Assembly: GCF_014633365.1 (NCBI RefSeq)
Contig: NC_068338.1
Location: 52,773,716-52,837,715 of the forward strand
Origin: Diospyros lotus
Lineage: Eukaryota > Streptophyta > Magnoliopsida > Ericales > Ebenaceae
Length of the DNA: 64,000 nucleotides
Direction: 5' to 3'
Shown here: piece by piece, positions 3,113 to 31,901 of the stretch
Numbering within the stretch: the first letter of the stretch is position 1
Layout of the letters: each line of letters begins with the position of its first letter
Made by a program: the position numbers and the translations under genes
The notes under the pieces: model-generated
What the model saw: the letters and a program-made list of their open reading frames with translations, nothing else
The model's database searches: none
Told to the model about the DNA's origin: nothing

Positions 3113-5000
3113 AAAAATGACATTTTCGGGTTTGGTGGCCAACTAAGCCCAAAATCGGGTTTGGTTGCCCACCAAACTCGATTTTTATTTATTTATTTAT
3201 TTATTTTTTGTCTTTTCTTTATTTCTCATTGAAATCGATACGCACAACATTATATAAAATTATTGTTTATAAACTTCACTATCAATTTTTAGATAATCAT
3301 AACATCATCTCTGTCCAAGATTATGCTTAGTAGCTAGAACACTTTGATCATGTATTGCTTGATTGATTATCAAATCTTCCCATTGTTGTGCACCCTAAGT
3401 TCAATCAACCCTTAAAACATAATAAAAAAGAATCATTTCTGAGGTCAAACAAGTCACGGAAAGAAATAAAAAATAAAAATAAAAAAGAGAGAAAAACGAA
3501 CATTTTAGGGTTTGATGGCCAACTAAGCCCGAAATCGGGTTTGGTTGCCCATTAAGCCCGAAATCGGGTTTGGTGGCCCACCAAACCCGATTTTTTTTTT
3601 TTTTTTGCTTTTTCTTTATTTCTCATTGAAACCGATACGCGAAACATTATATAAAATTATTGTTTATAAACTTCACTATCAATTTTTAGATAATCATAAC
3701 ATCATCTTTGTCCAAGATTATGCTTAGTAGCTAGAACACTTTGATCATGTATTGCTTGATTGATTATCAAATCTTCCCATTGTTGTGCACCCTAAGTTCA
3801 ATCAACCCTTAAAACATAATAAAAAAGAATCATTTCTGAGGTCAAACAAGTAACGGAAATAAATAAAAAAAATAAAAAAAGAGAGAAAAACGAACATTTT
3901 CGGGTTTGGTGGCCAACTAAGCTCGAAATCAGGTTTGGTTGCCCACCAAACCCGATTTTTTTTTTTTTTTTTTTTGCCTTTTCTTTATTTCTCATTGAAA
4001 CCGATACGCACAACATTATATAAAGTTATTGTTTATAAAATTCACTATCAATTTTTAGATAATCATAACATCATCTCTGTCCAAGATTATGCTTAGTAGC
4101 TAGAACACTTTGATCATGTATTGCTTGATTGATTATCAAATCTTCCTTTTGTTGTGCACCCTAAGTTCAATCAACCCTTAAAACATAATAAAAAAGAATC
4201 ATTTCTGAGGTCAAACAAGTCACGAAAAGAAATAAAAAAAAATAAAAAAGAGAGAAAAACGAACATTTTCGGGTTTGGTTGCCCACTAAGTCCGAAATCG
4301 GGTTTGGTGGTCCGAAATCGGGTTTGGTTGCCCACCAAACCCGATTTTTTTTTTTTTTTGCCTTTTCTTTATTTCTCATTGAAACCGATACGCACAACAT
4401 TATATAAAATTATTGTTAATAAACTTCACTATCAATTTTTAGATAATCATAACATCATCTTTGTCCAAGATTATGCTTAGTAGCTAGAACACTTTGATCA
4501 TGTATTGCTTGATTGATTATCAAATCTTCCCATTGTTGTGCACCCTAAGTTCAATCAACCCTTAAAACATAATAAAAAAGAATCATTTCTGAGGTCAAAC
4601 AAGTCACGGAAAGAAATAAAAAAAAGAGAGAGAAAAACGAACATTTTTGGGTTTGATGGCCAACTAAGCCCAAAATCGGGTTTGGTGGCCCACCAAACCC
4701 GATTTTTTTTTTTGGCCTTTTCTTTATTTCTCATTGAAACCGATACGCGAAACATTATATAAAATTATTGTTTATAAACTTCACTATCAATTTTTAGATA
4801 ATCATAACATCATCTTTGTCCAAGATTATGCTTAGTATCTAGAACACTTTGATCATGTATTGCTTGATTGATTATCAAATCTTCTCATTGTTGTGCACCC
4901 TAAGTTCAATCAACCCTTAAAACATAATAAAAAAGAGATCATTTCTAAGGTCAAACGAGTCAAGGAAATAAATAAAAAAAATATAAAGAGAGAGAGAAAA
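3113..5000. repeat. Five tandem units of ~355-397 bp, each with a palindromic GGGTTTGGT/ACCAAACCC core
   Basis: The landmark ATTTCTCATTGAAA recurs at 3221, 3618, 3987, 4371 and 4726, giving periods of 397, 369, 384 and 355 bp. Each unit has a variable T tract, a conserved ~260-bp AT-rich segment (containing GATTATGCTTAGTAGCTAG) and an A/G-rich segment. Before each T tract is a palindrome of GGGTTTGGT and ACCAAACCC arms. In the second unit, 3561-3593 is a perfect inverted repeat with 16-bp arms and a 1-bp centre. The units lie between the two convergent MULE genes. Confidence 0.9.
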
Positions 5001-5482
5001 ATGAACAATGCACTTTTCACAATCTTTTTTGTTTAATTTTAGAAAAATTTGGCAAAATCTTCCTTGTTTTCCTTCCATTGAACCTGTATTAGAGACTCAG
5101 TCTCTTTTTACAATAACATACAACCACAATTCAATCATTACAAATTTTGATTGATGCAACCACAGTTTAGGTGAAAGAAACCAAAAGATTATCGTTGCTA
5201 AATTTATTCCTATTACAAATAATAATGTTAAAAACAACATTCATTCTCCATGACAAAAATAAATATTGGGTTGATGCTGTGTTCGAAGCCTTTTGGTCAT
5301 CATTTTTTCTCTTGTAGCAGTGATTTTTGAGCATTGCTGATATACAGAGGAGATATGGTCAGTAAGAAATCCAAACACACTATAAATGTGAGTAAGAATC
5401 ACATTATTGTTGAAAAGATCTAACAACTATTAATTAATAACATAAGTGATGACTTTATCATACCTGACTGAGTTCATGTATA
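5001..5482. other. Spacer downstream of the transposase
   Basis: AT-rich, with no repeat unit and no supported gene. It probably contains the 3' untranslated region and terminator of the minus-strand transposase. Confidence 0.4.
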
Positions 5483-8101
5483 TTAATTGTTTACATTGTT
5501 GCCAAGGTTATCATCACCTGGATTGAACAACCGTACAAGGCATCGACGACGAGTGTGTCCAGTCTCTTTGCAAATGCTGCATTTTTGACTAGCCCTTGTA
5601 GTAGATATTGCAACGTCTCTTGATTCTAGAGTAGCTGCTGTGCTTGACTCTCCAATGGAGGAAGACCATTCATTAGGGCAACCAAGACGGTTGTGTCCCT
5701 GTGCACCGCATTTTTCACATTTTTTCCTTCGATGAGCTTCCCCAGCGGATGGAATCCGATCCTCTCTCGGTCTACCAGGTTGTCTTCTTTGTATGAGTGG
5801 GTGTACAACCACCCCTCTGATGTGCACAGGAATAACCCAAGCAGACTTGTTAGGGACCGGATTGATGGGAAATTCATATGCTTTTCTGACCCATCTTGAG
5901 ATGTAATATGGATGGCAAAACGAATAGTAGTGCACCCGCATGAAACTGTCACCATACAATAAATAAAGACAGTGTTAATATCACGTTATGAATGAAATAA
6001 GAATAATAAAGTCAAATCATGATACCTGCTAGCAGCAACTGCATGAAGACATGGTAATTGATCAAGGTCCCACTTACGACAACTGCATGTATTCGCAGCA
6101 ATGTCAACGATCCCATCGCCTTCCTTAGCATGTTTCACGAGGAACTTGTTCCCGTGTATTATAGGAACTACGCTACATCCTCGATCTAATGTTTTGCTAT
6201 GGACAAAGTTGACATGCGCTACTGCAGCTGAGGTAATCTCAGTTTCGAGTCTGACAGCAGTAGCACGTCTGTCACTGAACCATTTCTGAAGCATATGTCT
6301 CAGAAATTCATGTGCACTCGTTATAGGCAACCGACGTGCTTTCATCGTGCATTTATTGAGAGACTCGGCAATATTGGTGGTCATCATGGAATATCTTCTT
6401 CTCGGACAATATGCACGCGACCACTTTTCTATTCTTGCTTCCACCAATGTCAGATGCGCCTGAGGATGCATAGACTGTATTTCTGCCAAGTATGTATCAC
6501 ACTCTACTTGGGTATAGCTGTATGCTGCACGGTAAAATGTCTCCATCACATCCTTTCCCTGTCTACATCGTTTCTTTAAGTTTTGCTTAAGGTGGAAGAA
6601 ACAGAATACATGTGGGACATTGGGGAAGACAAAACTCATCGCATTCGCAATGCTTTGGTGTCGATCGGATACGATGACCAAATCCTCTGGCACGCCAATA
6701 GCCTCTCTCAATTTTTCCAAAAACCAAATCCATGATTTGTCAGACTCACCATCTCCAAATCCAAAAGCGATAGGATAAATCATCTCTTCCCTATCTTTAC
6801 AAGTGGCAACAAAAATCACCCATTTGTATTTACCTTTCAAGTGGGTGGCGTCAATGGCAACAACTGGTCTTATGTAAGACCGAAAACCCTTAAGGGAAGC
6901 TCCAAGTGCAAAAAATGAATATAAGAAACAATTATTTTCGTTTGTTTCTATTGCCGTGATACTGCCTGGATTTGTTTCTTTCAACATGTGAAAATATGAG
7001 GGTAGCTGCTGAAATGACTCATCTGCATTACCGTAAGCAAGTCTCTTTGCATGCTGTAAACTGTAAAGACCTCCAAGCTTTAGTGTACATGATCTGCACA
7101 CCATGTTGCTCCAACAACTCCCCAATTAGCATTCCAGGTGTATATTCGCCAATTGCCACTCGTTCTGAGAACAAACTCCCTATGACAATGGCCTTCACAC
7201 TTCGAAAATGTGAATCGTAGACATCTGGAGTACATGTGTGACTCGGGATAAACTTCACCACATGCCAAAACGTACAACCAGGTCTACATCTTGCACGAAG
7301 CAGAAACTTATAGTTCACATCTTCGCAACCGACCTCAAATCGAACAGTGCACGGACGTCTGATTCGATAGTCCATCTTCACATGAACACAATATTGTCCA
7401 AAGGCCAATATCAATTCATGTTTACTTTTAAATAGTGCGCCTTGGTAAAAATAATCACCCTGGAAGGAAATCAACACTTCAGGTCGCATTGCCTCAATTG
7501 CACAATTTTCTACTCCAGGAACAACCCAATTTCCATGTAAAGGGTTGTCCTCAAATTATGAACCTGAAAATCTCACTTCAGGGTAATCCGAACTGGCTCC
7601 TCTTTCATTACCATCACCACTACTATCATCACCATTATCATCTGTTTCATTATCACCATCATCATCCATGTGTGCAGCATCACCTGACAAACCAGTTGTA
7701 CCATATGTACCAAAATCATCATTCCACATTGGACTACGTGTTGATGTAAGTGGAATGTCAACACCTGTATCTTGATTACCACCACAAACTCCAGCATCTG
7801 TACTAATCATATCAACATAAATCACTTTATATCTGCCTCCTTCGCACATAACAAACTCAACACTATAGTCGTCATCGATAGGGAGCTTAGTACTTGGAAG
7901 ATTGCTTGATGGTTCACTTAAAAAATGAATGTTGATGTCGTACATTGTTTTATCAATTCCCATCACCGTGTAAACAATATCAATCAATTGACTAAAAGTC
8001 GCATTCTTGTTAGCCATCATACACTTCTTATTCCCTCCAATGTACTTATCATCATCATTCAATTTCCCGTTCCACATGATGACCAACAGCACTTTATCCA
8101 T
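5483..8101 (-). pseudogene. MURA-type (MULE) transposase, interrupted by one stop and one 7-bp duplication
   Basis: Exon 1 runs 8101-6026 and exon 2 runs 5945-5483; the donor GCAG|GTATCA and acceptor GACAG|TTTC join in frame. The order is: N-terminal PB1-like/plant mobile domain starting MDKVLLVIMW; an acidic Asp-rich linker; a Mutator DNA-binding domain (FKSKHELILAFGQY...); the DDE core with VVAIDATHLKG and VIVSDRHQSI; a SWIM zinc finger CSCRKWDLDQLPCLH; then two CCHC knuckles (CEKCGAQGHNRLGC and CSICKETGHTRRRC). Two lesions break it. An in-frame TAA lies at 7556-7558; the reading continues in the same frame to the next segment. A tandem 7-bp duplication (CTGTAAA at 7054-7060 and 7061-7067 on +) shifts the frame. 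Otherwise the protein is near full length, so loss of function looks recent. Confidence 0.88.
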
Positions 8102-14460: not shown

Positions 14461-15707
14461 TTTTAACCTCAAGAATTTTTATGGGTACTACAACAGGTTA
14501 TAGTTACTTTAATAATTGTAATTATAATCATAATTAATAATTTATTTATTTATTTTAATCATAACATAATCTATACATATTTTATATTTTTTTAGTTGTG
14601 TCTGTTGATGTAACATCTTTTTGTATATTAGTTTTGATGATAAAAAACATCTATTAGCTTAATCCCTAAATCATGAGTCAAGATTGTGGTTTTCAACATA
14701 TATCAATTTCAATATCAAGTATTACTTTGCGAAAATGAAAACCAAATAAATTTCAAGTATCGAGGTTTGCAAAACCTTATTTTTTCTAAGTCTAGAAACT
14801 AACCTTATAAGGAGACCTATAAGAAAATATTTTCTTTTTAGAAAACTATCTCTCGGTATTTTGATAGCTAATATTCATTGGTGTTAAAATGATTTTTAAC
14901 GAATTTTTCAAGAAATAGAAAATATATATTTTGGAAGTAGCAAAATCGCAAAATCATGAGTTTGTACTAAAACCCAAATTCTACTTTCTTATTGTTATGG
15001 ATTTTGATTTTCTAGATATTTTTATTGAATCCAAATAAGGGGTACTTTTATTATTTACATTTATGTATTAAAGTAAATGGAACGTAAAATATAAATAAAA
15101 GAAAATGTGGACATTTACCTACATTAAATGTTTTGGACTATGTTTTGAAACCTACATTCTATGTTTCGAAACCTTTGACATTTCTGTCAGCAGAGATTTA
15201 AAATCCAAGATGCTTTTGTTTTGCATATTAAAAGCTTCTCAAAGTATTTTTAAATGTTTTCTCCATGCTCTAAGAATTTAAATTCAAATTTGAAGTGGAG
15301 AACATTTTTAAATCATAGTGGGCATAAGACCTTGTCTCGCACTTAATGTTGTCTCTAAGTGTAAGTCCAACTGGAAAGGCTGTATGTTTTTAAACATGAG
15401 GAATATGTTTCGAAACCTAAAGTGTAAAATTGTGATGTTTCGAAACCTGTATGCTATGTTTCGAAATCTACTTTTCTGTCTTGTCTCTAACGGCTATAAA
15501 ACAGTTAGATTTCTATCTCTTGATATAAATAGTAAGTGTTTGAAGACAATAATATGCAAGTATAAGAGAACACACACTAGAGACACATACACAAACACAA
15601 GTGGTGATCAAAACCTTTATTCAAGTTCTCAAAGAAGATCTTCTACAAATCCTACTCTTACACAATGCAAGTGTGAAAGGAGAAGTAAGTGCAAACAAGG
15701 AGTCTCA

Positions 15708-17574
15708 TGACTGCACTCCCACCCTACAATTAAAACACAAAACAAAACACAATAAAAATTTTATATTTTTTTTCTTTGTTTAGGTGAGAGGTTTATACTC
15801 GTCAGTATACAAGTGCAGTTGTAGTCCAAATTTAAATTTATATTTTCTGAATGAGTCCAGGTCGTCCACTGAGAGATTTATTTATGGCAAAATAAAAAGA
15901 ATGTCACACAAGCACACACGCATTTGGATAAATTGGCAACAAGGTTTTTTATGGTTTTTTAAACAACAGATTCTAGGAAATAAATTAAGGCAGTAATTGA
16001 AATAAATACTTTAAGTGAGAATATAAAATTGGATAGTACTTGAGTTAAGACAATTTCAGTGCCAACCCGTTGATTCCCAAATTTTAGCATAAAAGATTAG
16101 CAACATTAATTTAATTTCAGATATGAGGGTTTGTTATTAAATGCAATTAGAGATGATGATAGTTGTAGGTTAAGCAATCCCCATACATGATATGCAGGAT
16201 TCTAATTTAAGCAACCACCATAAATTCAATTGCAATTAATACACAAAACAACTAAATTAATCATCCGGGTTTGGGTATGATAGCGTTTCCAGTTCTAGTA
16301 ACTCTCATACATGACATGAAAGCTCTAAGTTAGGCTTACGCTCCAATCCAAACCTAGTGATTTCTCAATAATTAAGATACACTCATACTGAAATTTAAAT
16401 TAATGTTATTTATTTAAAGCGCAGCTTTCTTTGGGAATCATTGGCGTTGGACATTGTCCTTGCCTTAACCCAAGATTAGATTTAGCTACTCATTTCCATT
16501 TAAAAGTTAATTGACATGAATTTAAACGACGTAATTTAAATAACAGAATTTAAATGACAAGAAATTTTAAAGGCATAAACTAACCGGCCATTTAGGCGGT
16601 GGATAATTAAATAACAAGAATTAAAATTGCAGAAATTTAAAGGCATAAACTAACCGTCCATTTAGGCGGTGAATAATTAAATGACAAGAATTAAAATTGC
16701 AGAAATTTAAAGGCACAAATTAACCGGCCATTTAGGCGGTGAATAATAAAGTAATAATAAATGACATAAGAATTTAAAAGAAGAAAGGAAGGAAGTAAGA
16801 TCACAAGAGAGAATACTAAAGAAAAGGGGAAAGAACAAGAACAATTCTCAAAGAGAGAATTATAAGGAAACAACTAAACTTTGATTCAAGAATAATAATC
16901 ACACTTACAAATGCAATCAAGTGATCTATTTATAGACCACAAGATGCAATACAAACCACACAATTTCAATTATTCAACTAGACATAATTATATCTAATGG
17001 GCACTCACACACTTAAAGTTAAATGGATTTTAGCTATAATACACACCTAATATTAAATGGATTTTAGCTAAAATACATACCTAATAAAGCATTCATAAAG
17101 TTAAATGGATTTTAGCTATAATATCCACCTAATAGTTAAATGGATTTTAGCTAAAAAACACACCTAATAAAGCTCTCACATAAAAAATAAAAATAGATTT
17201 CTATAAATTGGTTTTTAATCTTCATTAGGATTAAAAATAATCCTTGGGCCTTTTCCAAATAATATCTTCCATGGGTTGCTCAAATTGAGCCTTAATTTTT
17301 CATGGGCTTGATTTCTTCATGGACTTGAATTCTTCATGGGCTTGATTTTTCCATGGGTTTGATTTCTTCATGGACTTGAATTCTTCATGGACTTTAAGTC
17401 TTCATGGGCTTGAATTCTTCATGCCTAAAAAAAAAATAAAAATAATTTAATGTTATTAATAAATTATATATTATATATATGTATTACACATGGCACATAT
17501 ATATATTATATTATATTATATATATATTACATGCATGCATATAATGATGTATATGTATTATATATAATTTTATA

Positions 17575-17610
<36 letters not shown>

Positions 17611-17759
17611 ATTTTACTTTAAAATTTCATTTCATTCATTTTTCAATTTAAACTTGCATATAACCATAAAATATATATTAATATCTAATTTAAACTATTT
17701 TTAAGATCAAAAGAAGGGTATAATTATAACAAAATTTTTATAAAATTAACCACTAATCA
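15708..17759 (-). repeat. 3' LTR of the Athila-type element (2,052 bp)
   Basis: TG...CA ends. Internal substructure: a 70-bp unit repeated three times (starts 16571, 16641, 16711; contains CCATTTAGGCGGTG), a minus-strand TATA box CTATAAATAG near 16925-16934, an AAATGGATTTTAGCTA unit repeated four times (about 17020-17160), and CATGGGCTTGA/CATGGACTTGA units (about 17275-17425). An ATT microsatellite near 17577-17608 is about 15 bp longer than in the other LTR. Confidence 0.93.
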
Positions 17760-17771
17760 TACCCCCAACTT
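17760..17771 (-). promoter_or_regulatory. Polypurine tract next to the 3' LTR
   Basis: Minus-strand AAGTTGGGGGTA abuts the LTR start, the expected primer position for plus-strand synthesis. Confidence 0.75.
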
Positions 17772-18050
17772 AAACATTGCTAGTCCCTTAGCAATCAGAT
17801 TATACACCTGCCAAACTTTATTCACAATAACTGTATAAAAATATAAACCAGATGATTCATGACTAGACCTTACACCCCCCAACTTGAATTGCAGTAATAA
17901 ATCAGGGTTGTTAGGAATACCTGTAACTCCACAAGTCCATAGATTTGCTGTGAACTGCTAAAACTTAAACAACAAATGAGCACACCATATATATATATTT
18001 ATATTTTCACACCAAAATAAAAATTTCATGCAAGTCATAAGATAAGCAAA

Positions 18051-18249
18051 ATGCGTCTCAAGAGTACAAAAAGTACTCCTTACTCAGCCATCTTATCAAA
18101 GACTTTGCTAACAACATTCCACAGTTTTGTTTTGTTTTTTTTTTTTTGTTTTTTTTTTTAAAGAACACAACCAAGAAAAATTATGCAAGTTGTACAATAA
18201 CTAGATGCGTCTCAAGAGTACAAAAAGTACTCCTTACTCAGCCATCTTA
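18051..18249 (-). repeat. Duplicated hairpin element downstream of the LOG-like ORF
   Basis: Copies at 18051-18095 and 18204-18249 share an identical ~44-nt core. In the element's sense strand it reads CTGAGTAAGGAGTAC, TTTTT, then GTACTCTTGAGACGCAT, so AGGAGTAC can pair with GTACTCTT as an 8-bp stem with a 5-nt loop. The flanks (TATGCAAGT, CCATCTTA) are also related, so a ~154-bp segment was duplicated. Confidence 0.8.
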
Positions 18250-18263
18250 ATAAAGAGCATTTC

Positions 18264-18923
18264 TCACAGTGATAAATCTAAATTAATCGGACCCCTTTGG
18301 CGCTTGTTACTAATTGCCTTAGACCAGTCTATCCGAGGCTCATGAGGATCGTACTGTGGAACATAAGCATGTAATTTCTCTAGCAGCTTATCAATGGTGG
18401 ATGCAGAAATGAGAATCTTTCTTGCTGAACGAGAAATGAACTGTTGGTCCACAGCCTGATCAAGAAAAGAGAGTAACCCATCGAAAAAATGGTTAACATT
18501 TAAAAGTCCAATAGGTTTGGTATGGAGATTACTCTTGGCCCAGGAGATTATACAAAAGATTTCTTCAAGTGTTCCAAAACCTCCTGGTAAAGCAATGAAG
18601 GCATCTGACTGATAAATCTTACAAGCCATGCGCTCAGACATAGAAGTCGTTTCTATAAGTTGACTGCGTGTAATCCCGGAAATATGTGGTTCAGCTAAAG
18701 GGATTGGCATTATACCTACCACAAATGAATTTCCAAGATGTACAGCTTGTGAAACATAACCATTCAATCCACGACTTCCCCCTCCATATACCAAATTAAT
18801 TTTTTTCTCTCCTAATTTTTTACCAAGTTCGCTCGCTGCAAGTGCGTAACAAATATCGCTCCCAAGTTGAGAGCCACAAAGTACACATATGGTATTGATT
18901 CGACGAACTAACTGGCCTTCCAT
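18264..18923 (-). CDS. LONELY GUY (LOG)-like cytokinin riboside 5'-monophosphate phosphoribohydrolase inside a retrotransposon
   Basis: An intact, intronless 219-aa ORF in the element's sense orientation. LOG enzymes release active cytokinin bases from their riboside monophosphates in the cytosol and nucleus. Visible family hallmarks: ICVLCGS at 12-18 (Rossmann start), LVYGGGSRGLNG at 44-55, the conserved Arg of the substrate site in MSERMACK (R98), PGGFGTLEE at 113-121 with the catalytic Glu, and WAKSNLHTKPIGLLNV after it. Length matches plant LOGs (about 210-230 aa). Differences from typical host LOGs are GGGSRGLNG instead of GGGSxGLMG and a diverged segment at 70-97. Host LOG genes have several introns, so capture through RNA is likely. 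A splice acceptor TTTTCAG lies 20 nt before the ATG. Activity is untested; a paralogous role is possible. Confidence 0.85.
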   Translation of the reverse strand: MEGQLVRRINTICVLCGSQLGSDICYALAASELGKKLGEKKINLVYGGGSRGLNGYVSQAVHLGNSFVVGIMPIPLAEPHISGITRSQLIETTSMSERMACKIYQSDAFIALPGGFGTLEEIFCIISWAKSNLHTKPIGLLNVNHFFDGLLSFLDQAVDQQFISRSARKILISASTIDKLLEKLHAYVPQYDPHEPRIDWSKAISNKRQRGPINLDLSL

Positions 18924-18943: not shown

Positions 18944-18950
18944 CTGAAAA
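18944..18950 (-). promoter_or_regulatory. Candidate 3' splice site before the LOG-like ORF
   Basis: Minus-strand CTTCTTTTCAG followed 20 nt later by the ATG at 18923. It would allow expression from a spliced subgenomic transcript. A donor-like GAT|GTGAGC lies near 19050, giving a ~105-nt intron. Inferred from sequence only. Confidence 0.45.
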
Positions 18951-19090
18951 GAAGTTTGGCGATCAAAAGTAGCTATACAACAATTCAACAAGAAATAAAT
19001 ACAAACAAAAATCATGCGTATGTATAAGTAGTTGTGATTGTGGCTCACATCTTCCTCTGGTTTTACGTCCAGAAACGGCTTAAACACTTT

Positions 19091-19636
19091 CTATGAAGTG
19101 GGGATAAGCTTCCCATCCAATTTTCTTATAGATTGGCAAACAGGGTCGTTTTTAGTCAGATTCCCAAGACTATAGCGTTGGTGGTCACTTCTGAACTGGG
19201 TCCATAAAGCAAGAAGTTCTCTTTGCACTATTCCACACGGATGCGTCTCAAGAGTCAATCGGATATCATCCAGAGACTCCTTACTCAGTCCATCCTTTAT
19301 GAAACTAATTTTATCTTCTCGATTTATGGACGTAAACCCCACAGATTTGCATCGTGTGTTACAGGTCCATCGAGCACATTTGTAACAACCATTCACTCTT
19401 TTCGCTCTTCTTTTCTTCGCAAAACTACTCTTCCCTAAGCCTGAAAAATACTTAAAACTAGGTGAAGTTTCACCAGCTAATCGAACTTTTGCTTCGATCA
19501 GCCAACGAATATCTTCAGGGATGTTATTAAGCATCAACAACCTAAGTCTTTCACACCTAGCAACATAAATTTTTTTCAAATCATTCTGCGGGAGAGATGG
19601 ATAGTACTTGTGAATTTTTGAGAGATAAAGATCCAT
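19091..19636 (-). CDS. Basic Cys-rich protein resembling nucleic-acid-binding proteins of carla-like plant viruses
   Basis: An intact 181-aa ORF between pol and the LOG-like ORF, same strand. A helical N-terminal half contains IPEDIRWLIEAKV (39-51). It is followed by SGLGKSS (65-71), a basic run AKKRRAKR (73-80) and a Cys cluster C84-x2-C87-x4-C92-x3-C96, then a C-terminal region ending LDGKLIPTS. The order amphipathic helix, Gly/Ser, Arg/Lys-rich patch with an Ala-Lys-Lys-Arg-Arg-Ala signature, Cys cluster is the layout known from carlavirus-type Cys-rich proteins, which bind nucleic acid and can act as silencing suppressors. Those are usually smaller (about 95-130 aa), so the C-terminal part would be an extension. 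The assignment rests on motif order by eye, not on a search. The start is the first ATG after a strong acceptor site. Confidence 0.5.
   Translation of the reverse strand: MDLYLSKIHKYYPSLPQNDLKKIYVARCERLRLLMLNNIPEDIRWLIEAKVRLAGETSPSFKYFSGLGKSSFAKKRRAKRVNGCYKCARWTCNTRCKSVGFTSINREDKISFIKDGLSKESLDDIRLTLETHPCGIVQRELLALWTQFRSDHQRYSLGNLTKNDPVCQSIRKLDGKLIPTS
19241..19293 (-). repeat. Third copy of the hairpin flanks, inside the Cys-rich ORF
   Basis: Sense strand CTGAGTAAGGAGT and ACTCTTGAGACGCAT match the 18.05 and 18.2 kb copies but are separated by a longer loop. In frame it encodes GLSKESLDDIRLTLETHP. Either the two downstream copies are shortened duplicates of this coding segment, or the structure was selected. 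Confidence 0.75.
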
Positions 19637-19656: not shown

Positions 19657-19670
19657 CTAAGAAAAAAAAG
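19657..19670 (-). promoter_or_regulatory. Candidate 3' splice site before the Cys-rich ORF
   Basis: Minus-strand CTTTTTTTTCTTAG ends at 19657, 20 nt before the ATG at 19636, the same spacing as at the LOG-like ORF. A GATCAG|GTATTC donor is only ~52 nt upstream, too short for a plant intron, so a more distant donor would be needed. Confidence 0.4.
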
Positions 19671-20535: not shown

Positions 20536-23500
20536 CTACTCATCAGATGATGATGGATCATCTAAATCCACAACTCCTTCATTCTCCTCAACACTACCCT
20601 GGTATGGTTTCAACCTATGACCATTGACTGTTAGAAGCTGTCTAGACTCCGGATTTTCTATCTCAAATGCCCCATATCCTGAGATGGACTTGATTACAAA
20701 GAGGCCGACCCATCGAGACTTCAATTTTCCTGGGAATAGATGCAATCGAGAATCATACAAGAGTACCCGTTGCCCTACCTGAAAGCTTTTTCGAATGATG
20801 TGCCGATCATGTAACTCTTTCATGCGAACCTTAGCCAATCGTGCATTTTCAAATGCTTCATTCCGAATTTCCTCAAGTTCATTCAATTGGAGCTTCTTGG
20901 ATAAGCCTGCTTCAGTTAGACTCTTGTTGATTTTATGAATTGCCCAATATGCTTTATGCTCAATTTCCACCGGCAGATGACAAGATTTACCGTATACTAC
21001 TATAGGGAGACATTCCCAAAATTGTTTTGTAAGCTGTCCTGTACGCCCAAAGAGCGTCTACTAGTCTTAAGGACCAATCCTTACGATTAGTAGCAACAGT
21101 CTTTTCCAATATGCGCTTAATCTCCCTATTGGCTAGCTCGGCTTGACCATTGGTTTGGGGATGGTATGGTGTTGCAACCTTATGCAGTACACCATATTTC
21201 TTCATTAATCCTGCCACAACTTTATTACAAAAATGGGAACCCCCATCACTGATGATTGCTCGTGGCATCCCAAATCGACTGAATATGTTTTCTTTCAAAA
21301 ATTTCACGACAGTCCTATGGTCATTTGTTCTGGCCGGGATTGCTTCTACCCATTTGGACACATAGTCAACAGCAAGTAAGATATATTCATGACCAAATGA
21401 ATTGACAAATGGGCCCATAAAATCCATACCCCAACAGTCAAAAACTTCTAACACTTGGATCGGATGTAATGGCATCATGTTTCTCCTTGACAGACTTCCT
21501 AACCTTTGACATCGATCGCAATTTGAACAGAACTTGTACACATCCTTGAACAGTGTCGGCCAATAAAATCCACTCTGAAAAATTTTTGCAACTGTTTTCT
21601 TGACAGAAAAATGGCCTCCACATGCAATAGTATGACTGAAATTGATGACACTTTGTTGCTCATGATCGGGTATGCATCTACGGATGATTTGGTCAGGACA
21701 ATACTTGAAGAGGTAGGGCTCATCCCAAAAGAAGGTTCTGACTTTTCTGAAGAATTTATGCCTATCTTGCTTACTCCAATGGTCTGGGATCAGACCAGTT
21801 GCCAGGTAGTTCGCAATGTCGGCATACCAAGGGACAACAAATGATGCACGAATAACATTCACTTTAAACAGTTGCTCATCAGGGAAATTGTCATGAATTG
21901 GTTCATCAAATTGTGTGAGATCTTGACTTGGAATCCTTGACAAATGGTCAGCCACCACATTTTCTACTCCTTTCTTGTCTCTGATTTCAATGTTGAACTC
22001 TTGCAGGAGTAAGATCCATCGGAGCAGACGGGGTTTTGCATCTTGCTTTGTGAACAAATACTTCAGAGCAGCGTGATCAGTAAAAATGATCACTAGTGAC
22101 CCTACGAGGTAAGATCGAAACTTGTCCAGGGCAAAGACAACTGCTAGTAACTCTTTCTCTGTAGTGGTGTAATTCTTTTGTGCCTCATTAAGAGTTTTGC
22201 TAGCATAATATATCACATGAGGTTTCTTATCCTTCCTCTGCCCTAACACAGCTCCTACCGCATAATCACTAGCATCGCACATAAGTTCAAACGGGAGGGA
22301 CCAATCAGGGGACTGAATGATAGGTGCTGAAATGAGTGTATCTTTCAATTTATCAAAAGCATTTTGACAGGCAGGACTCCATTCAAACGGAACATCTTGA
22401 GACAACAAATGGCACAAGGGTCTTGTTATGGTGCTAAAGGAAGCAATGAATCTCCTATAAAACCCTGCATGTCCCAAAAAACTTCTGATGTTTTTCACAT
22501 TCCTAGGGATGGGGAGTTTTTGAATTGTTTCAATTTTTGACCTGTCTACCTCCATCCCCCTAGATGAAACGATGTGCCCCAAGACTATGCCCTGTTTCAC
22601 CATGAAGTGACATTTTTCCCAATTGAGTATCAGATTTGTTTCCTCACATCTTGCTAAAACCTTTTTCAGATTCTCCAAACAGGCCTCAAAGTTACTTCCA
22701 TAAACAGAAAAGTCATCCATAAATACTTCAACAATCTGCTCAACCATTTCACTGAAAATGCTCATCATACACCTTTGAAAGGTGGCTGGAGCATTGCATA
22801 ACCCAAATGGCATGCGCCTGTATGCAAATGTCCCAAATGGACATGTGAAAGTTGTCTTCTCTTGATCTTCTAGTGCAATTTCTATCTGATTGTACCCTGA
22901 GTAGCCATCTAAGAAACAATAGTAGGCTTGGCCTGCTATTCTCTCCAGAACTTGATCCAAGAAAGGCAAAGGAAAATGATCTTTCCTTGTCACAGAATTG
23001 AGCTTTCTATAATCAATGCACATACGCCATCCTGTCTGGATGCGCGTGGGAATCAGTTCATTGTTCTCATTTTTTACAACAGTGACTCCAGACTTTTTGG
23101 GTACTACCTGTGTTGGACTTACCCACTTAGAATCAGAGATTGGGTAAATTATTTCAGCATCCAATAGCTTAAGCACTTCTTTTCTGACAACTTCTTTCAT
23201 GTTGGATTTAATCTCCTTTGCATTTGCCTAACTGGTTTTGCTCCTTCTTCCAAGAATATCTTATGAGTACAGATCAAAGGGCTAATACCTTGTAAATCTG
23301 AAATGGTCCATCCTAATGACTTCCTGTGTGCTTTTAGAACTTCTATCAGTTGTTGCTCTTGCTGAGGTGTCAAACTTGAAGAGATCACCACTGGGAATGC
23401 TTCCCCTTCTCCTAGAAAGACATACTTCAAATCACTGGGCAATGGCTTTCTCTCAGGCGTGGACTGATGGCTATCAGGAGCCATGAGCTTACTGTCCAAG

Positions 23501-24474
23501 TTCCTTAATGGCTCTAAACCAGGCATCCATGTAGGCTTCTCACTTTCTTTGCTTATGACTTCCACTTCTTTTATTTCTTCGAGATCTTGATTTCCTTCTT
23601 TGGGTCTTCTCATGAACTCTTCAAAACATTCATTGGTCAGTGTTTGGATCAAGTCTACCTCATCCACTTCACTCTCAGTGTCCTGATGTTTGGCTACCTT
23701 GAAGATATTCATTTCTACAGTCATGTTCCCAAAAGATAGCTTTAACACACCATTCCTACAGTTGATGATGGCATTTGATGTGGCAAGGAATGGTCGACCT
23801 AAGATGACTGGCACAGGAGGTTGAGGCCCCTGATGCGGCTGGGTGTCCAAAACGATGAAGTCCACTGGAAAGTAGAACTTATCGATTTGTACCAGAACAT
23901 CCTCCATAATTCCTCGTGGAACTTTGACTGATCGATCAGCCAGCTGAAGGGTCACTCTAGTGGGTTTAAGCTCACCTAATCCCAACTGTTGATACACACT
24001 GTATGGCAACAAATTGACACTAGCTCCTAAATCCAAGAGTGCACGATCAACCTTTTGACTTCCTATGATGCATGTAATGGTTGGATAGCCTGGATCTTTG
24101 TATTTGGGAGGAGTTTTCAATTGGAGAATGGCGCTGACTTGTTCAGTCAAGAATGCCTTTTCATGCACATTTGTTTTCCTTTTGACAGTGCACAGATCTT
24201 TCAAAAACTTTGCATATGAAGGTGTTTGTTTGATTGCATCCAACAGCGGAATGTTGATTCTCACTTGCTTAAACACTTCATATATATCTGCATTTTGTTG
24301 CTCTTTTTTCAAATGATTCAACCTTTGTGGAAAAGGTGGTTTGGGCCTGTATTGAATTTCTTTCTCATCTTCTTTTTGTTTTTCATTTTTCTCATTTTTT
24401 TCATTTTTTCTCATTTTTTTCATTTTTTTCCACGGTGGATTCATGATCTTTTGGTTCTTTTTCTTCATCAACAT
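20536..24474 (-). pseudogene. Athila pol: protease, reverse transcriptase, RNase H, integrase (frameshifted)
   Basis: Three open segments: 24474-23197, 23200-20987 and 20970-20536. Protease has ALLDLGASVNLLP. RT has [32 protein letters not shown] and FMDDF (the catalytic xMDD). RNase H has [13 protein letters not shown] and [18 protein letters not shown]. Integrase has the HHCC finger (HTIACGGH ... CSNCDRC), [15 protein letters not shown] and the [10 protein letters not shown] glutamate, and a C-terminal segment with SRWVGLFVI. Segments 1 and 2 abut at 23197-23203, where one A appears to be missing in the CCAACATGAAA context and creates a TGA. Segments 2 and 3 break near 20985-21010 by a small indel. 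The polyprotein therefore cannot be made in full without correction; assembly error is an alternative. Confidence 0.93.
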
Positions 24475-26032
24475 GTTGGTTTATCCTAGGATCAGTTGGT
24501 TTCTCAATTATTCTTCCACTTCTTAGGGCAGTCACTGCTTGCACTTGTTCATGAGTGTTGGTTTCACTATTTGAAGCTTCTACCTGGTTGGTTTGCCTAA
24601 TTGGGTTAGGATTAGTTTGGGATGGAAACCTCTCGGGTTCTCTCACACTCAATGTTTGTGTTATCTTGGTCAATTGGCTCCTAATGTCTTCTATGGCTCT
24701 GTTTGTTTGGTCTTGATTTTTGACAAGCTGAGCAACCTGATTATTGATACCTGTTTGACTTTGGATGAACTGGTGCAAGGTATCTTCCAAAGATCTCCTA
24801 TGAGGAGGTTGGTAAGTATTGGATGAAGAACCTTGATTTTGTTGGAAGGTATGTTGTTGTGTAGGGAATGGAGGTTGAGAATGATTTCCAGAATCATTTC
24901 TCCAAGAAAAATTGGGGTGATTTCTATTATTGGGATGGTATGAATTGTAGTTCTGATTATTCCCATAATAGGCTCCACTCTGATTTTGATTTTGTCTCCC
25001 CTCAAAGTTGTGTGAATGATTGTTATTAGTCTGCCCATACAATACCTCCTTGAAAGCAGGTAGGGTAGGACATTCTTCAGTTGAATGATCTGTTACATCA
25101 CACACAGCACACTTTACTTCCACTTGATTAACAGATTGCACCTTTTTGGGTTGCATGTTTTCAACTTTCTTTGTTAAAGCAGTTAGTCTTGCATTTAAAT
25201 CGTCACTCTCACTCAGTTGGTATCTCCCTCTAGGTTGTGAATTTTCTCTTGAATCAAGAGCAGATGTTGGACCAACTTCCCAGTTCCTTGTATTCTCAGC
25301 CAATGTGTCAAAGAAGTGGAAAGCTTCTTCTGGAGTCTTCTCATAGAATTCTCCATTGCACATTGTAGAAACTAGCATTTTCAATTGGGGAGTGAGTGAA
25401 TCATGAAAGAAACTGACCATTCTCCATTGCTCAAAAGCATGGTGCGGACAAGTGTGAAGAAGGTCTTTAAACCTTTCCCACGCTTGCGCAAAATTCTCAT
25501 TTGGTTTACAGGCAAAGTTCATGATTTGTCTTTGAAGAGTAGCAGTTCTGTTGGCAGGGAAGTATTTTTTTAAGAAAGTTGTTTGCATTTCTCTCCAAGT
25601 TCCTATAGATCTAGGTGGAAGAGTGCTTAACCATATTTTTGCCTTATCTTTCAGTGAGAATGGAAAGAGTTTTAATCTTATGACATCCTCATTTGCTGTA
25701 TGGTCCATGCAAGTGCTACATACTTCCTCAAATTCTTTCATATGAGTATATGGATTTTCAGAATCCATGCCATGAAAAGTTGGCAACAATTGGATTGTGC
25801 CAGGTTTGAAGTTAAACCTATGATGATTGATAGGAAGAATAATGCATGAGGGGGTTGTCTGCCTAGGAGGATGAAGATACTCCCTAAGGGGTCTGATCAT
25901 CTCCTGATCAATGGGATCAGGGTCACCGTGGTCACTACCACGTGCAGACATGTTCTGTGGAAGTGGCATGTTCTCATTGTGTTGAGACATGAGTGACTGA
26001 TTTTCTACAGTTTTACCTGACCTAAGTATCAT
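24401..26032 (-). CDS. Athila gag (543 aa)
   Basis: Starts MILRSGKTVENQ. It contains the plant retrotransposon gag domain (ENPYTHMKEFEEVC ... WLSTLPPRSIGTWREMQTTFLKKYFP ... FAQAWERFKDLLHTCPHH), then a CCHC knuckle CAVCDVTDHSTEEC and an Asn/Gln-rich tail. The frame leaves that of the protease in a Lys/Glu/Asn-rich tract (24401-24474) coded by a GAAAAA-type repeat, where slippage could explain the break. Athila gag and pol are normally one ORF. Its product forms the particle that packages element RNA. Confidence 0.88.
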   Translation of the reverse strand: MILRSGKTVENQSLMSQHNENMPLPQNMSARGSDHGDPDPIDQEMIRPLREYLHPPRQTTPSCIILPINHHRFNFKPGTIQLLPTFHGMDSENPYTHMKEFEEVCSTCMDHTANEDVIRLKLFPFSLKDKAKIWLSTLPPRSIGTWREMQTTFLKKYFPANRTATLQRQIMNFACKPNENFAQAWERFKDLLHTCPHHAFEQWRMVSFFHDSLTPQLKMLVSTMCNGEFYEKTPEEAFHFFDTLAENTRNWEVGPTSALDSRENSQPRGRYQLSESDDLNARLTALTKKVENMQPKKVQSVNQVEVKCAVCDVTDHSTEECPTLPAFKEVLYGQTNNNHSHNFEGRQNQNQSGAYYGNNQNYNSYHPNNRNHPNFSWRNDSGNHSQPPFPTQQHTFQQNQGSSSNTYQPPHRRSLEDTLHQFIQSQTGINNQVAQLVKNQDQTNRAIEDIRSQLTKITQTLSVREPERFPSQTNPNPIRQTNQVEASNSETNTHEQVQAVTALRSGRIIEKPTDPRINQHVDEEKEPKDHESTVEKNEKNEKK

Positions 26033-26133
26033 ACACTATGCAAAAATAAAGTAAAAAGAAACAGAGTTACCGAATTTATCAGGAGATGCTTCTTCTTATA
26101 TTTTTTTTTTCCTTTTTGTTTTTGCCTCAATCT

Positions 26134-26151
26134 TCCCCGGCAACGGCGCCA
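26134..26151 (-). promoter_or_regulatory. Primer-binding site for tRNA-Asp
   Basis: The plus strand reads TCCCCGGCAACGGCGCCA, identical to the 3' end (with CCA) of plant tRNA-Asp(GUC) as I know it. It lies 5 nt from the 5' LTR (26157). This primer is typical of the Athila/Tat group. Confidence 0.85.
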
Positions 26152-26156
26152 AAATT

Positions 26157-28195
26157 TGACTGCACTCCCACCCTACAATTAAAACACAAAACAAAACACA
26201 ATAAAAATTTTATATTTTTTTTCTTTGTTTAGGTGAGAGGTTTATACTCGTCAGTGTACGAGTGCAGTTGTAGTCCAAATTTAAATTTATATTTTCTGAA
26301 TGAGTCCAGGTCGTCCACTGAGAGATTTATTTATGGCAAAATAAAAAGAATGTCACACAAGCACACACGCATTTGGATAAATTGGCAACAAGGTTTTTTA
26401 TGGTTTTTTAAACAACAGATTCTAGGAAATAAATTAAGGCAGTAATTGAAATAAATACTTTAAGTGAGAATATAAAATTGGATAGTACTTGAGTTAAGAC
26501 AATTTCAGTGCCAACCCGTTGATTCCCAAATTTTAGCATAAAAGATTAGCAACATTAATTTAATTTCAGATATGAGGGTTTGTTATTAAATGTAATTAGA
26601 GATGATGATAGTTGTAGGTTAAGCAATCCCCATACATGATATGCGGGATTCTAATTTAAGCAACCACCATAAATTCAATTGCAATTAATACACAAAATAA
26701 CTAAATTAATCATCCGGGTTTGGGTATGATAGCGTTTCCAGTTCTAGTAACTCTCATACATGGCATGAAAGCTCTAAGTTAGGCTTACGCTCCAATCCAA
26801 ACCTAGTGATTTCTCAATAATTAAGATACACTCATACTGAAATTTAAATTAATGTTACTTATTTAAAGCGCAGCTTTCTTTGGGAATCATTGGCGTTGGA
26901 CACTGTCCTTGCCTTAACCCAAGATTAGATTTAGCTACTCATTTCCATTTAAAAGTGAATTGACATGAATTTAAACGACGTAATTTAAATAACAGAATTT
27001 AAATGACAAGAAATTTTAAAGGCATAAACTAACCGGCCATTTAGGCGGTGGATAATTAAATAACAAGAATTAAAATTGCAGAAATTTAAAGGCATAAACT
27101 AACCGTCCATTTAGGCGGTGAATAATTAAATGACAAGAATTAAAATTGCAGAAATTTAAAGGCACAAATTAACCGGCCATTTAGGCGGTGAATAATAAAG
27201 TAATAATAAATGACATAAGAATTTAAAAGAAGAAAGGAAGGAAGTAAGATCACAAGAGAGAATACTAAAGAAAAGGGGAAAGAACAAGAACAATTCTCAA
27301 AGAGAGAATTATAAGGAAACAACTAAACTTTGATTCAAGAATAATAATCACACTTACAAATGCAATCAAGTGATCTATTTATAGGCCACAAGATGCAATA
27401 CAAACCACACAATTTCAATTATTCAACTAGACATAATTATATCTAATGGGCACTCACACACTTAAAGTTAAATGGATTTTAGCTATAATACACACCTAAT
27501 ATTAAATGATTTTAGCTAAAATACATACCTAATAAAGCATTCATAAAGTTAAATGGATTTTAGCTATAATATCCACCTAATAGTTAAATGGATTTTAGCT
27601 AAAAAACACACCTAATAAAGCTCTCACATAAAAAATAAAAATAGATTTCTATAAATTGGTTTTTAATCTTCATTAGGATTAAAAATAATCCTTGGGCCTT
27701 CTCCAAATAATATCTTCCATGGGTTGCTCAAATTGGGCCTTAATTTTTCATGGGCTTGATTTCTTCATGGACTTGAATTCTTCATGGGCTTGATTTTTCC
27801 ATGGGTTTGATGTCTTCATGGACTTGAATTCTTCATGGACTTTAAGTCTTCATGGGCTTGAATTCTTCATGCCTAAAAAAAAAATAAAAATAATTTAATG
27901 TTATTAATAAATTATATATTATATATATGTATTACACATGGCACATATATATATTATATTATATTATATATATATTACATGCATGCATATAATGATGTAT
28001 ATGTATTATATATAATTTTATATATTATTATTATTATTATTATTAAATTTTACTTTAAAATTTCATTTAATTCATTTTTCAATTTAAACTTGCATATAAC
28101 CATAAAATATATATTAATATCTAATTTAAACTATTTTTAAGATCAAAAGAAGGGTATAATTATAACAAAATTTTTATAAAATTAACCACTAATCA
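26157..28195 (-). repeat. 5' LTR of the Athila-type element (2,039 bp)
   Basis: Near-identical to 15708-17759. Its promoter TATA box is CTATAAATAG on the minus strand at 27375-27384. The differences from the other LTR are scattered substitutions, a 1-bp deletion in one AAATGGATTTTAG unit and fewer ATT repeats. Confidence 0.93.
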
Positions 28196-29057
28196 TCTCA
28201 TCTCTTCAGCTCTCCTCACATCAAACCAAGAGATTTGTACAGCGATTTGGTAAGGCATTTTATTGCATTCAATCTATTGGATCGTAAAGATAAAACTTTA
28301 TTTATCTTGTTAATGTTGTAAGATTTGAATTTAGCCTAAAACTCATTGTGATGAAAGGTTTGAGTTGAGCCTAAAATGCACTTGGTGTTAAATTTGAGTC
28401 GAGCCCGTAAAAACTTATTGTATAAGGTTTTGGGATGAACTATGGTAAAACCTTTATTGTGGTTGATCACTAGTAAAAGTGATTGGGATTGAAAAATCAT
28501 TCAAGTGGGTAAGCTTGAAAGTAATAGAGTAGGCGGGGTGCCGAACCACTATATATCTTGTGTGCAATTGTTCTTTCACTTTGGCTTATCATTATTGTCT
28601 ATTGCTCATGCTTTCAAAAGAATTGTTTTCAAAGACTAAAACAAAGTTTCTTTGAGCTTAAACATACATATTCATTTAAGCTTATCTTTGATCTCAAACA
28701 TCTTTGGTATTCTCTTACTTATGTAAATCATCATTGCCAAATATCATTATTTTGAAATACAAACCAAAAGATTTGGAATCAAGTAAAACAGAAAAATATA
28801 GTTCGAAACATACAATCTATATTTTGAAACTAGCAAAACAATGAGTTATTTTGAAACATATATAATAGGTTTTGAAACCTACTTAACATAAAAGTTTATT
28901 TCAAAACATATACCCTATATTTCGAAACATAGTATTCTACCATCTACCATTGTTTTAATTATCGAAAAATTTATACGAATCCCAATTTACCCCATTCTTG
29001 GGATATATTTGACATCATTAGGATCAACATCTGTCAGATAGTGTTGACATACATTTT

Positions 29058-30210: not shown

Positions 30211-30371
30211 CATATCGTGTCATCATCACAGGGGCCCATAGCACCGGGTTCGTCCCACCTCGGTCGCCTAGAGGGCAACTGAAGGCTCACAAGTGCGGTG
30301 AGGCTCTTCGCCGTCGAAATGCGAGAGCTATAAGTTGACCTGTGGCTGTGGGCCCATGATAACACAATGTG

Positions 30372-30602
30372 TGTAATACCCTAAGAGCCCAGAAAAAGGG
30401 TAGTATACATCGAGAAGAATAAGTAAGGAATGAAACAACACTAGTTGGATATCTTTTGGGCTTAATGTAGGCAAAGAACTCCAGGGTTAAGTGTGCTTGA
30501 CCTGGGGAAGCCCAAGGATGAGTGACCCCCCTGGGAAGTTCGCGTAGGCCCATTAGGGTAAGTTATCCTAGACCTTCATATCGCTTGATGCGAGGTGTTA
30601 CA
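30372..30602 (+). repeat. Cassandra-like LTR 4 (231 bp)
   Basis: TGTAATACCC to GTGTTACA; 5S-like segment at 30484-30544 on +. Confidence 0.78.
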
Positions 30603-30824
30603 AAAATGTGTGTCAATATTTGGCGTCATCTGCGGGAAACCCCTAATGGTCCCTACAACCCCCGATAAAGAAGGGGCCAATAGAGCCCTACCACACCTGC
30701 CGGGGGGATGGTGTGGATGCACCCAGTTTGTTGAGAGGCTCACAAGTGCGGTGGGGCTCTTGGTCGTCGAAAGTCAAGAGTTATGAGCTGACCTGTGGTT
30801 GTGGGTCCATGATAACATGATGTG

Positions 30825-31051
30825 TGTAATACCCCAAGAGCCCAGAGAATGGTAGTATACATCGAGAATAAGTAAGAAATGAAACAACACTAGTTGGATA
30901 CCTTTTGGGCTGAATGTAGGCAAAGAACTCTAGAGTTAAGCATGCTTGATCTAGGGAAGCCCAATGATGGGTGACCCCCCTAAGAAGTTCGCATAGGCCT
31001 ATCAGGGTAAGTTCTCTCTGACTTTCTTATCGCTCGATGCGGGGTATTACA
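30825..31051 (+). repeat. Cassandra-like LTR 5 (227 bp)
   Basis: TGTAATACCCC to GGGGTATTACA; followed by TTTGGCGCCATTTATGGG. Confidence 0.78.
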
Positions 31052-31284
31052 AAAATGTGTGTTAACATTTGGCGCCATTTATGGGAAATCTTCGAGGGGA
31101 TCGCCCATCACCCTCCGCACTGGGAGGGGTCAGGGGGCCGATTGGCCCCTAGGTATGAATCCCACATCAGGTCGCCAGAGGGCGACTGAGGGGCTCATAA
31201 GTACGGTGGGGGCTCCTGGCCGTTGAAGGGCGAGAGCTGAGAGCTGACCCGCAATTGTGGGCTCCATGATGATGACACGATGTG

Positions 31285-31509
31285 TGTAATACCCCAAGAG
31301 CCTAGAGAAATGTAGTATATATTGAGAATAAGTAAGGAAGAAAATAACACTAGCTGGATTCTTTTTGGGCTGAATGCAGGCAAATAACTCCAGGATTAAG
31401 TGTGCTTGACTTGGGAAAGCCCAAGGATGGTGACCCCCTGAAAGTTCGCGTAAGTCCATCAAGGTAAAGTTGTTCCGGACTTTTTTATCGCTCGATGCGG
31501 AGTGTTACA
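31285..31509 (+). repeat. Cassandra-like LTR 6 (225 bp)
   Basis: TGTAATACCCC to GAGTGTTACA; the last copy before the array end at 31525. Confidence 0.78.
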
Positions 31510-31901
31510 AAAATGTGTGTCAACAAATAGAAATATAACTGAATCAATCAAATTAGGGGGGGGTCAAAATAGAGGATTTAATTATAAGAGAATTTTAAGT
31601 CTGTTATTGATTAGACTATATCAGTGTTTAGCAACATAAATAGTTTGATATTTTTATTTTTTTTATTTTTTTATTCTATTTGATTTGAGCATTTATTTGA
31701 TTTACTTGTTCGATTTAAAAAAAAAATGGTCTATTCAATTTAAATTACGTCAGATCTTTATGAGTAATTTGATCGATTCGATTACATTCTTATTTGATAG
31801 ACACAATTAAAAAGACATAAAATATATAAAAGTTATGTTATGATTAAAAAAAAAAAATTATTAATTATATTTATAATTACAATTATTAAAGTAACTATAA
31901 C

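What the first reader, a model, noticed from the sequence alone, without database searches (positions are those of the whole stretch)
18264..18923. A cytokinin-activating LOG homologue carried as an intact ORF inside an Athila-type retrotransposon
The ORF lies between pol and the polypurine tract, on the element's coding strand, well inside both LTRs. It keeps the LOG signatures (GGGSxGL, the substrate-site Arg, PGGFGTLEE) at normal length with no stop or intron, while host LOG genes are intron-rich. A retroelement that raises local cytokinin could promote cell division or meristem activity and so favour its own spread to the germ line. I know of no described Athila element with this gene, though I cannot search.
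Basis: partly seen in the sequence, partly recalled or inferred. Interest (0 to 1): 0.88.

Follow-up and report, generated by a model that had tools for sequence, protein, structure and literature searches.

The report
Hormone-enzyme gene carried by plant retrotransposons
A plant jumping gene carries a long-kept relative of a growth-hormone-activating enzyme, next to a gene resembling a plant-virus protein that dampens host defences, which suggests that some mobile elements may influence their host much as viruses do.

Summary
The ORF is real: 219 aa, intact, minus strand, inside a young LTR element (14 differences in 2,040 aligned LTR bases, 5-bp TSD), between pol and the PPT-like tract. It is a LOG-family protein, but not a one-off copy of a host mRNA: it sits in a clade apart from every sampled plant LOG (33 of 33 tips together, support 98) with relatives in Diospyros, Populus, Xanthoceras, Malvaceae and Rehmannia. 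LOG in Ty3/gypsy elements of Citrus and Populus is already in print, so the headline is not new.

Not found in print by my searches: (1) an upstream partner ORF matching plant-virus nucleic-acid-binding proteins, with pN/pS 0.40 against a relative from another genome; (2) a C-terminal LxLxL tail in 84 of 110 clade members and 0 of 122 host-type LOGs; (3) catalytic Arg and Glu kept in 104 of 110 while pocket residues K100/E125, kept in 122 of 122 host-type LOGs, remain in 12 and 11 of 110, so 'cytokinin-activating' is unproven; (4) a hairpin-forming sequence in the partner gene repeated twice just after LOG.

Best reading: a conserved two-gene host-manipulation module. The pair and its sequence constraint are shown; the effect on the host is inferred.

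The parts
15703..15707 (.). target-site duplication TCTCA (left)
15708..17759 (-). 3' LTR of the element
17760..17771 (-). polypurine-tract-like sequence AAGTTGGGGGTA next to the 3' LTR (a second one, CAAGTTGGGGGGTGTAAGG, lies inside 17860-17895)
   Evidence: assignment by position and composition
18049..18093 (-). hairpin copy C
18203..18247 (-). hairpin copy B, just after the LOG stop codon
18264..18923 (-). LOG-family ORF, 219 aa, with C-terminal tail NKRQRGPINLDLSL
18944..18955 (-). splice-acceptor-like CTTCTTTTCAG, 21 nt before the LOG ATG
   Evidence: pattern scan only
19025..19090 (-). 66 nt after the partner gene's TAG stop, 58 of 66 nt identical to L001
19091..19636 (-). partner ORF, 181 aa, viral nucleic-acid-binding-protein-like (basic stretch plus Cys motif)
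19239..19295 (-). hairpin copy A, inside the partner ORF (codons 114-133)
19657..19670 (-). splice-acceptor-like tract ending TTTCTTAG, about 20 nt before the partner ATG
   Evidence: pattern scan only
20536..20970 (-). C-terminal integrase region, separate frame (no Pfam match on its own; aligned to L001 integrase ORF)
20987..23200 (-). reverse transcriptase, RNase H, integrase
23197..24474 (-). aspartic protease region
24401..26032 (-). gag
26133..26154 (-). primer-binding-site-like stretch TTTTGGCGCCGTTGCCGGGGAA next to the 5' LTR (tRNA-Asp complementarity recalled)
26157..28195 (-). 5' LTR of the element
28196..28200 (.). target-site duplication TCTCA (right)

Best explanation
The ORF is one half of a two-gene accessory module that an Athila-type LTR retrotransposon lineage carries between pol and the 3' LTR. 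Gene 1 encodes a small basic Cys-motif protein of the plant-virus CRP/NABP type. Gene 2 encodes a LOG-derived phosphoribohydrolase with an added basic tail ending in LxLxL. SHOWN: both ORFs are intact and adjacent here, the LOG belongs to a separate clade found in several eudicot orders, and both proteins show sequence constraint. INFERRED: each is translated from its own spliced mRNA (an acceptor-like site lies about 20 nt before each ATG); gene 1 weakens RNA silencing and/or acts on transcription as viral CRPs do; the LOG protein goes to the nucleus, keeps phosphoribohydrolase chemistry (on cytokinin nucleotides or a shifted substrate) and recruits or titrates TOPLESS-type co-repressors through its tail. 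Net effect: cells pushed toward a dividing, less-silenced state that favours transposition and transmission.
For: Clade: 33 of 33 sampled element-type LOGs together, UFBoot 98; also one clade. Constraint on LOG, protein level: in 25 members under 70% identical, 34 of 206 columns invariant, and column entropy tracks that of host LOGs (Spearman 0.54, p 5e-17). Catalytic R99+E122 kept in 104 of 110 (residues from PMC4979012 passages). Tail: LxLxL in the last 12 residues in 84 of 110 versus 0 of 122 host-type LOGs; background 50 of 41,168 twelve-residue windows of the LOG domain; 20 of 25 thinned members; 81 of 110 also carry a basic run. Partner: PF05515 33.3 bits (cut-off 23) and PF01623 23.4 (cut-off 20.9); each hit by 37 of 42 aligned members; against L001 pN/pS 0.40 (0.29-0.54), and 0.32 (0.21-0.45) for codons 1-100. 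Pairing elsewhere: three Orobanche gracilis gene models contain the partner followed by LOG. Function of viral CRPs: PMC12172455 passages.
Against: No function was tested. Only the window copy is shown by DNA here to lie in an LTR element with LOG; the other clade members are protein records without context. No second LOG nucleotide sequence could be had, so LOG dN/dS was not computed. K100 and E125 are lost in most of the clade, which may mean lost or changed activity. The EAR/TOPLESS and NLS readings are motif recall. 26 of 110 lack LxLxL by this pattern (including truncated records and the Xanthoceras forms). Relative L001 has the partner but no LOG ORF, so the pair is not obligatory. The viral match covers only about 57 of 181 residues.
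Confidence: 0.45

Rival explanations
1. One reading: a plain cytokinin-activating LOG that raises local cytokinin and so favours the element's spread; tail and pocket changes are incidental.
For: Fold, PGGxGTxEE, R98, E121 and W128 kept; basal-looking members (Xanthoceras proteins, P0068) keep K100 and E125.
Against: In this copy K100 is Met, H97 is Ser and E125 is Cys; in the clade K100 is kept in 12 of 110 and E125 in 11 of 110 versus 122 of 122 host-type LOGs. Both are also present in the two bacterial LOGs printed. NF058542 score far under its cut-off (that model is for prokaryotic naming).
Confidence: 0.27
2. The LOG fold is kept mainly as a scaffold: a nuclear protein that recruits or titrates co-repressors through its LxLxL tail, with catalysis secondary or lost.
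For: Tail absent from host LOGs and frequent in the clade; pocket remodelled.
Against: The catalytic Arg and Glu are kept in 104 of 110, unexpected for a pure scaffold.
Confidence: 0.2
3. A passive passenger: a host LOG mRNA transduced once, without function for the element.
For: Plant elements do capture genes (PMC7264820, parts 1 and 2 of 3 read); this copy's gag-pol is broken, so the copy itself may be dead.
Against: Clade across several orders, conserved catalytic residues and tail; about 50% identity to host LOGs rather than near-identity.
Confidence: 0.04
4. The partner's likeness to viral NABPs is convergence on a short basic-plus-Cys motif, so that only LOG is a recognisable accessory gene.
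For: Match limited to residues 63-119 (PF05515) and 64-96 (PF01623); no relative in IMG/VR by three protein-based scans with the partner or LOG; L001 scores 20.4 against a PF01623 cut-off of 20.9.
Against: Two Pfam models above cut-off in the window; each hit at E up to 0.01 by 37 of 42 members.
Confidence: 0.25

Closest known systems
LTR-retrotransposon consensuses with YgdH/LOG domain in Citrus and Populus (Alvarado-Marchena et al. 2022, PMC9289625, section 12 read; Steinbauerova et al. 2011, cited there, not held, content recalled)
   Same: LOG-type domain carried by Ty3/gypsy LTR elements
   Different: In the passages I saw there is no account of the partner gene, tail, pocket changes, selection, phylogeny or repeated hairpin
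Plant LONELY GUY enzymes (LOG3, LOG7, LOG8)
   Same: fold, catalytic Arg and Glu, PGGxGTxEE
   Different: separate clade; K100 and E125 mostly lost; LxLxL tail added; intron-free here
Carlavirus/allexivirus/mandarivirus cysteine-rich (NABP) proteins
   Same: basic stretch followed by Cys motif; Pfam PF05515 and PF01623
   Different: 181 aa with long conserved flanks; encoded by an LTR element
Athila extra 3' ORFs (env-like, PF03078, Transposase_32)
   Same: position between pol and the 3' LTR, sense strand
   Different: different proteins; both ORFs here are under 250 codons, the lower limit used in the 2019 survey PMC6317226 (passages)
Direct repeats flanking src in Rous sarcoma virus (recalled)
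   Same: an acquired host-growth gene lies between copies of a short structured element
   Different: no function of the hairpin shown; only an analogy

Membership tests
LOG family | Rossmann LOG fold with PGGxGTxxE | tested here: met
LOG family | catalytic Arg and Glu (CgLOG R99, E122) | tested here: met
   residues from PMC4979012 passages
Cytokinin-activating LOG | proposed prenyl pocket M96, H97, K100, E125, W129 | tested here: not met
   window has M, S, M, C, W at these sites
Cytokinin-activating LOG | phosphoribohydrolase activity on cytokinin nucleotides | not testable with these tools
   needs an assay
Ty3/gypsy LTR retrotransposon | LTRs with TG..CA, TSD, gag, PR-RT-RH-IN order | tested here: met
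Athila clade | RT phylogeny | not tested
   no reference RT set was at hand
Athila clade | non-chromovirus, without second RNase H (aRH) that marks Tat | tested here: inconclusive
   no chromodomain and one RNase H region reported by Pfam; criterion from PMC6317226 passages; PBS tRNA-Asp type by recall
Viral NABP / CRP family | Pfam PF05515 or PF01623 above gathering score | tested here: met
   L001 meets PF05515 only
Viral NABP / CRP family | silencing suppression or transcription activity | not testable with these tools
   needs an assay
EAR-motif (TOPLESS-recruiting) proteins | LxLxL motif (definition recalled) | tested here: met
   LDLSL at the C-terminus
EAR-motif (TOPLESS-recruiting) proteins | binding to TOPLESS | not testable with these tools
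   needs a binding assay

The most novel reading that the evidence does not exclude
An Athila-type retroelement lineage has carried, since before the spread of its clade through several rosid and asterid orders, a virus-like two-gene programme: a viral-type CRP plus a LOG turned into a nuclear, LxLxL-tailed phosphoribohydrolase with a remodelled base pocket. The LOG gene sits between copies of a structured RNA element that first lay inside the CRP gene and was duplicated behind LOG, as direct repeats flank src in Rous sarcoma virus.
Probability: 0.3. Interest if true: 0.85.

Novelty: new variant of a known kind. Interest (0 to 1): 0.62.

Why it matters
Extra ORFs of plant LTR retrotransposons are mostly without known function. 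Here two have concrete, testable activities (nucleotide hydrolysis, co-repressor binding, silencing suppression) and signs of long constraint. If they work as inferred, some plant retroelements steer host cell state and defence as viruses do, and the element-type LOGs, two of which are already named LOGL10 in Populus and Diospyros annotations, should not be counted as host hormone genes.

Tried and rejected
One-off transduction: rejected on the clade and conserved residues. Bacterial origin: not favoured, because plant and element LOGs group together against the two bacterial LOGs (support 99), but where the element clade attaches is unresolved: (bacterial root) it is sister to all sampled plant LOGs, (rooted on AtLOG8) it joins next to Papaver LOG; its long stem makes either doubtful. 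Readthrough of the partner's TAG stop: two of 120 listed relatives read on in frame (P0176, P0225), but two others (P0138, P0232) are frame-shifted readings of what looks like the same nucleotides and the window/L001 likeness past the stop is at nucleotide level, so a nucleotide-level element is more likely. Known RNA family: no Rfam match. Relatives in IMG/VR: none (hairpin pattern). Solved structure for the partner: none by profile. Hairpin caveats: the window copy A folds no better than shuffles (z -0.74; 40 of 200 as good); copies B and C z about -1.6; only L001 is clearly better (z -3.08). All 42 of 42 cells pair, but the covariation shuffle control is reached in 101 of 500 and there are only four sequences, three from this element. 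The synonymous-constraint segments were chosen after seeing the sliding table, so their p-values are post hoc; in codons 101-181 pN/pS rises to about 0.60 because pS falls.

Full report
Observation. The ORF at 18264-18923 is real, 219 aa, on the minus strand. It matches Pfam Lysine_decarbox (E 1.1e-32) and Arabidopsis LOG structures. It lies inside an LTR element on the same strand: LTRs 15708-17759 and 26157-28195, 14 mismatches in 2,040 aligned bases, TSD TCTCA, PBS-like and PPT-like stretches next to the LTRs, gag and protease-RT-RNase H-integrase in order. The gag-pol of this copy is divided among four ORFs in alternating frames; the relative L001 reads the integrase region in one ORF. Under a recalled rate of 1.3e-8 the LTRs would differ by roughly a quarter of a million years.

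The host plant is probably a Diospyros (persimmon) species: the nearest protein, 97% identical, is from Diospyros lotus (P0001). This is an inference from one protein.

Partner ORF. Upstream of LOG, 19091-19636 encodes 181 aa with matches to Viral_NABP (33.3 bits, cut-off 23) and Carla_C4 (23.4, cut-off 20.9) over residues 63-119 and 64-96. The protein search found 527 relatives at E up to 0.001 among 582 candidates (120 listed). Of 42 that I aligned (window plus 41 of the 120), 37 match each Pfam model at E up to 0.01. Three Orobanche gracilis gene models (P0163, P0193, P0199) hold the partner followed by LOG sequence, and P0163 ends in KRKRSLDPLDLSL. Two pairs of records share a contig length in the two lists (8,723 nt: P0023 and P0124; 4,511 nt: P0066 and P0140), which suggests but does not prove one contig.

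A second nucleotide sequence. A scan of prokaryote genomes found one relative, L001, a 3,330-bp plant-like contig placed in a Candidatus Nomurabacteria MAG. It holds an integrase ORF and the partner ORF (71% identical to the window's), then a PPT-like tract about 250 nt further on, with no LOG ORF. Between window and L001 the partner has pN/pS 0.40 (bootstrap 0.29-0.54), 0.32 (0.21-0.45) in codons 1-100; the integrase region gives pN 0.19 and pS 0.79. So the partner is under purifying selection, and elements with the partner but without LOG exist.

LOG clade. Of the best 120 of 7,841 hits, I class 110 as element-type and 10 as host-type from the tree (two short fragments, P0075 and P0105, were not in that tree but are among the 110). 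In an IQ-TREE run with 33 element-type, 36 host-type, two Arabidopsis and two bacterial sequences, all 33 form one clade (UFBoot 98) and join plant LOGs with support 99. Members include Diospyros, Populus, Xanthoceras, Reevesia, Diplodiscus, Pterospermum and Rehmannia. Apart from the window copy, their genomic context was not seen.

Active site. With CgLOG numbering from PMC4979012 (passages), R99 and E122 are both kept in 104 of 110 element-type and the single residues in 122 of 122 host-type LOGs. K100 is kept in 12 of 110 and E125 in 11 of 110, against 122 of 122 for each in the host-type set (10 and 112; both capped lists, mostly LOG7-like). H97 is kept in 40 of 110. The window has Ser, Met and Cys at 97, 100 and 125. 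The Xanthoceras forms and P0068 keep K and E, as do the two bacterial LOGs printed, so the loss looks derived.

Tail. LxLxL in the last 12 residues: 84 of 110 element-type, 0 of 122 host-type; background 50 of 41,168 windows. 81 of 110 also have a basic run before it. In the 25 members under 70% identical, 20 carry LxLxL. That LxLxL is the EAR motif and a basic run an NLS is recalled; PMC9485867 passages say only that EAR motifs recruit TOPLESS.

Constraint on LOG. In those 25 members (mean pairwise identity 0.59), 34 of 206 columns are invariant and column entropy correlates with that of host LOGs (Spearman 0.54, p 5e-17). This is protein-level evidence; LOG dN/dS could not be computed.

Repeated hairpin. 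A motif in the partner gene (19239-19295) recurs at 18203-18247 and 18049-18093, just after LOG; the cores CTGAGTAAGGAGT and ACTCTTGAGACGCAT match exactly three times each. All four sequences (with L001) are predicted to form a lower and an upper stem, 42 of 42 cells pair, and a model built from them finds no further copy in window plus L001 at E up to 5. Against: weak fold scores in the window copies and a weak covariation control. In the partner gene, synonymous identity at conserved residues is 33 of 67 in codons 1-100, 14 of 17 in the hairpin, 6 of 11 in codons 134-154 and 20 of 20 in codons 155-181 (segments chosen), and 58 of 66 nt past the stop are identical. The LOG gene thus lies between copies of a probable RNA-level element.

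Expression. Acceptor-like sites end at 19657 and 18944, about 20 nt before each ATG, and donor-like CAGGTAT occurs at 20251 and 19707. This is pattern matching only.

Literature. LOG (YgdH) in LTR consensuses of Citrus and Populus is in PMC9289625 (passages, section 12 read), which refers to Steinbauerova et al. 2011; from recall that paper's abstract mentions two Athila-like elements with LOGL4 similarity. The review PMC7264820 (parts 1 and 2 of 3 read) says, of antisense extra ORFs, that they lack similarity to viruses. For the partner, searches gave 0 papers, one search gave one listing on small-RNA virus detection and search 75 two glyoxalase papers (listings only). For EAR/TOPLESS with retrotransposons, one search listed three papers, none on an element-encoded motif by title and abstract start. 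The library holds only open-licence papers, so print elsewhere is not excluded. Viral CRPs as silencing suppressors, and one as a transcription factor causing hyperplasia, are from PMC12172455 passages.

Mechanism and odds. I commit to a two-gene host-manipulation module (0.45), with plain cytokinin activation as chief rival (0.27).

Noticed in passing
window 19025-19090 (-): Sequence past the partner's TAG stop is 58 of 66 nt identical to L001 and appears in other relatives in frame (P0176, P0225) or frame-shifted (P0138, P0232); role unknown.
   Followed up: partly
L001 (DAIEQH010000041.1): Plant-type Ty3/gypsy contig placed in a Candidatus Nomurabacteria MAG, probably contamination.
   Followed up: partly
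P0176: A partner-type protein whose in-frame extension ends in NLSLSL, an LxLxL-like end like that of LOG.
   Followed up: no
window 5986-7125 (-): MULE transposase with SWIM zinc finger.
   Followed up: no
window 3535-5007: 369-bp tandem array, 4 copies, with GGGTTTGGTGGCC motifs.
   Followed up: no
window 30253-31525 and 35368-36212: 449-bp (2.8 copies) and 281-bp (3 copies) tandem arrays.
   Followed up: no
window 34212-34799 (+), 37763-38278 (+): Two RING-H2 finger proteins.
   Followed up: no
window 39769-40602 (+), 48079-48723 (-): NUDIX-domain and LEA_2-domain proteins, ordinary plant genes.
   Followed up: no
Orobanche gracilis P0163, P0193, P0199: Gene models that fuse the partner with LOG sequence, probably by automatic annotation of element copies.
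   Followed up: partly
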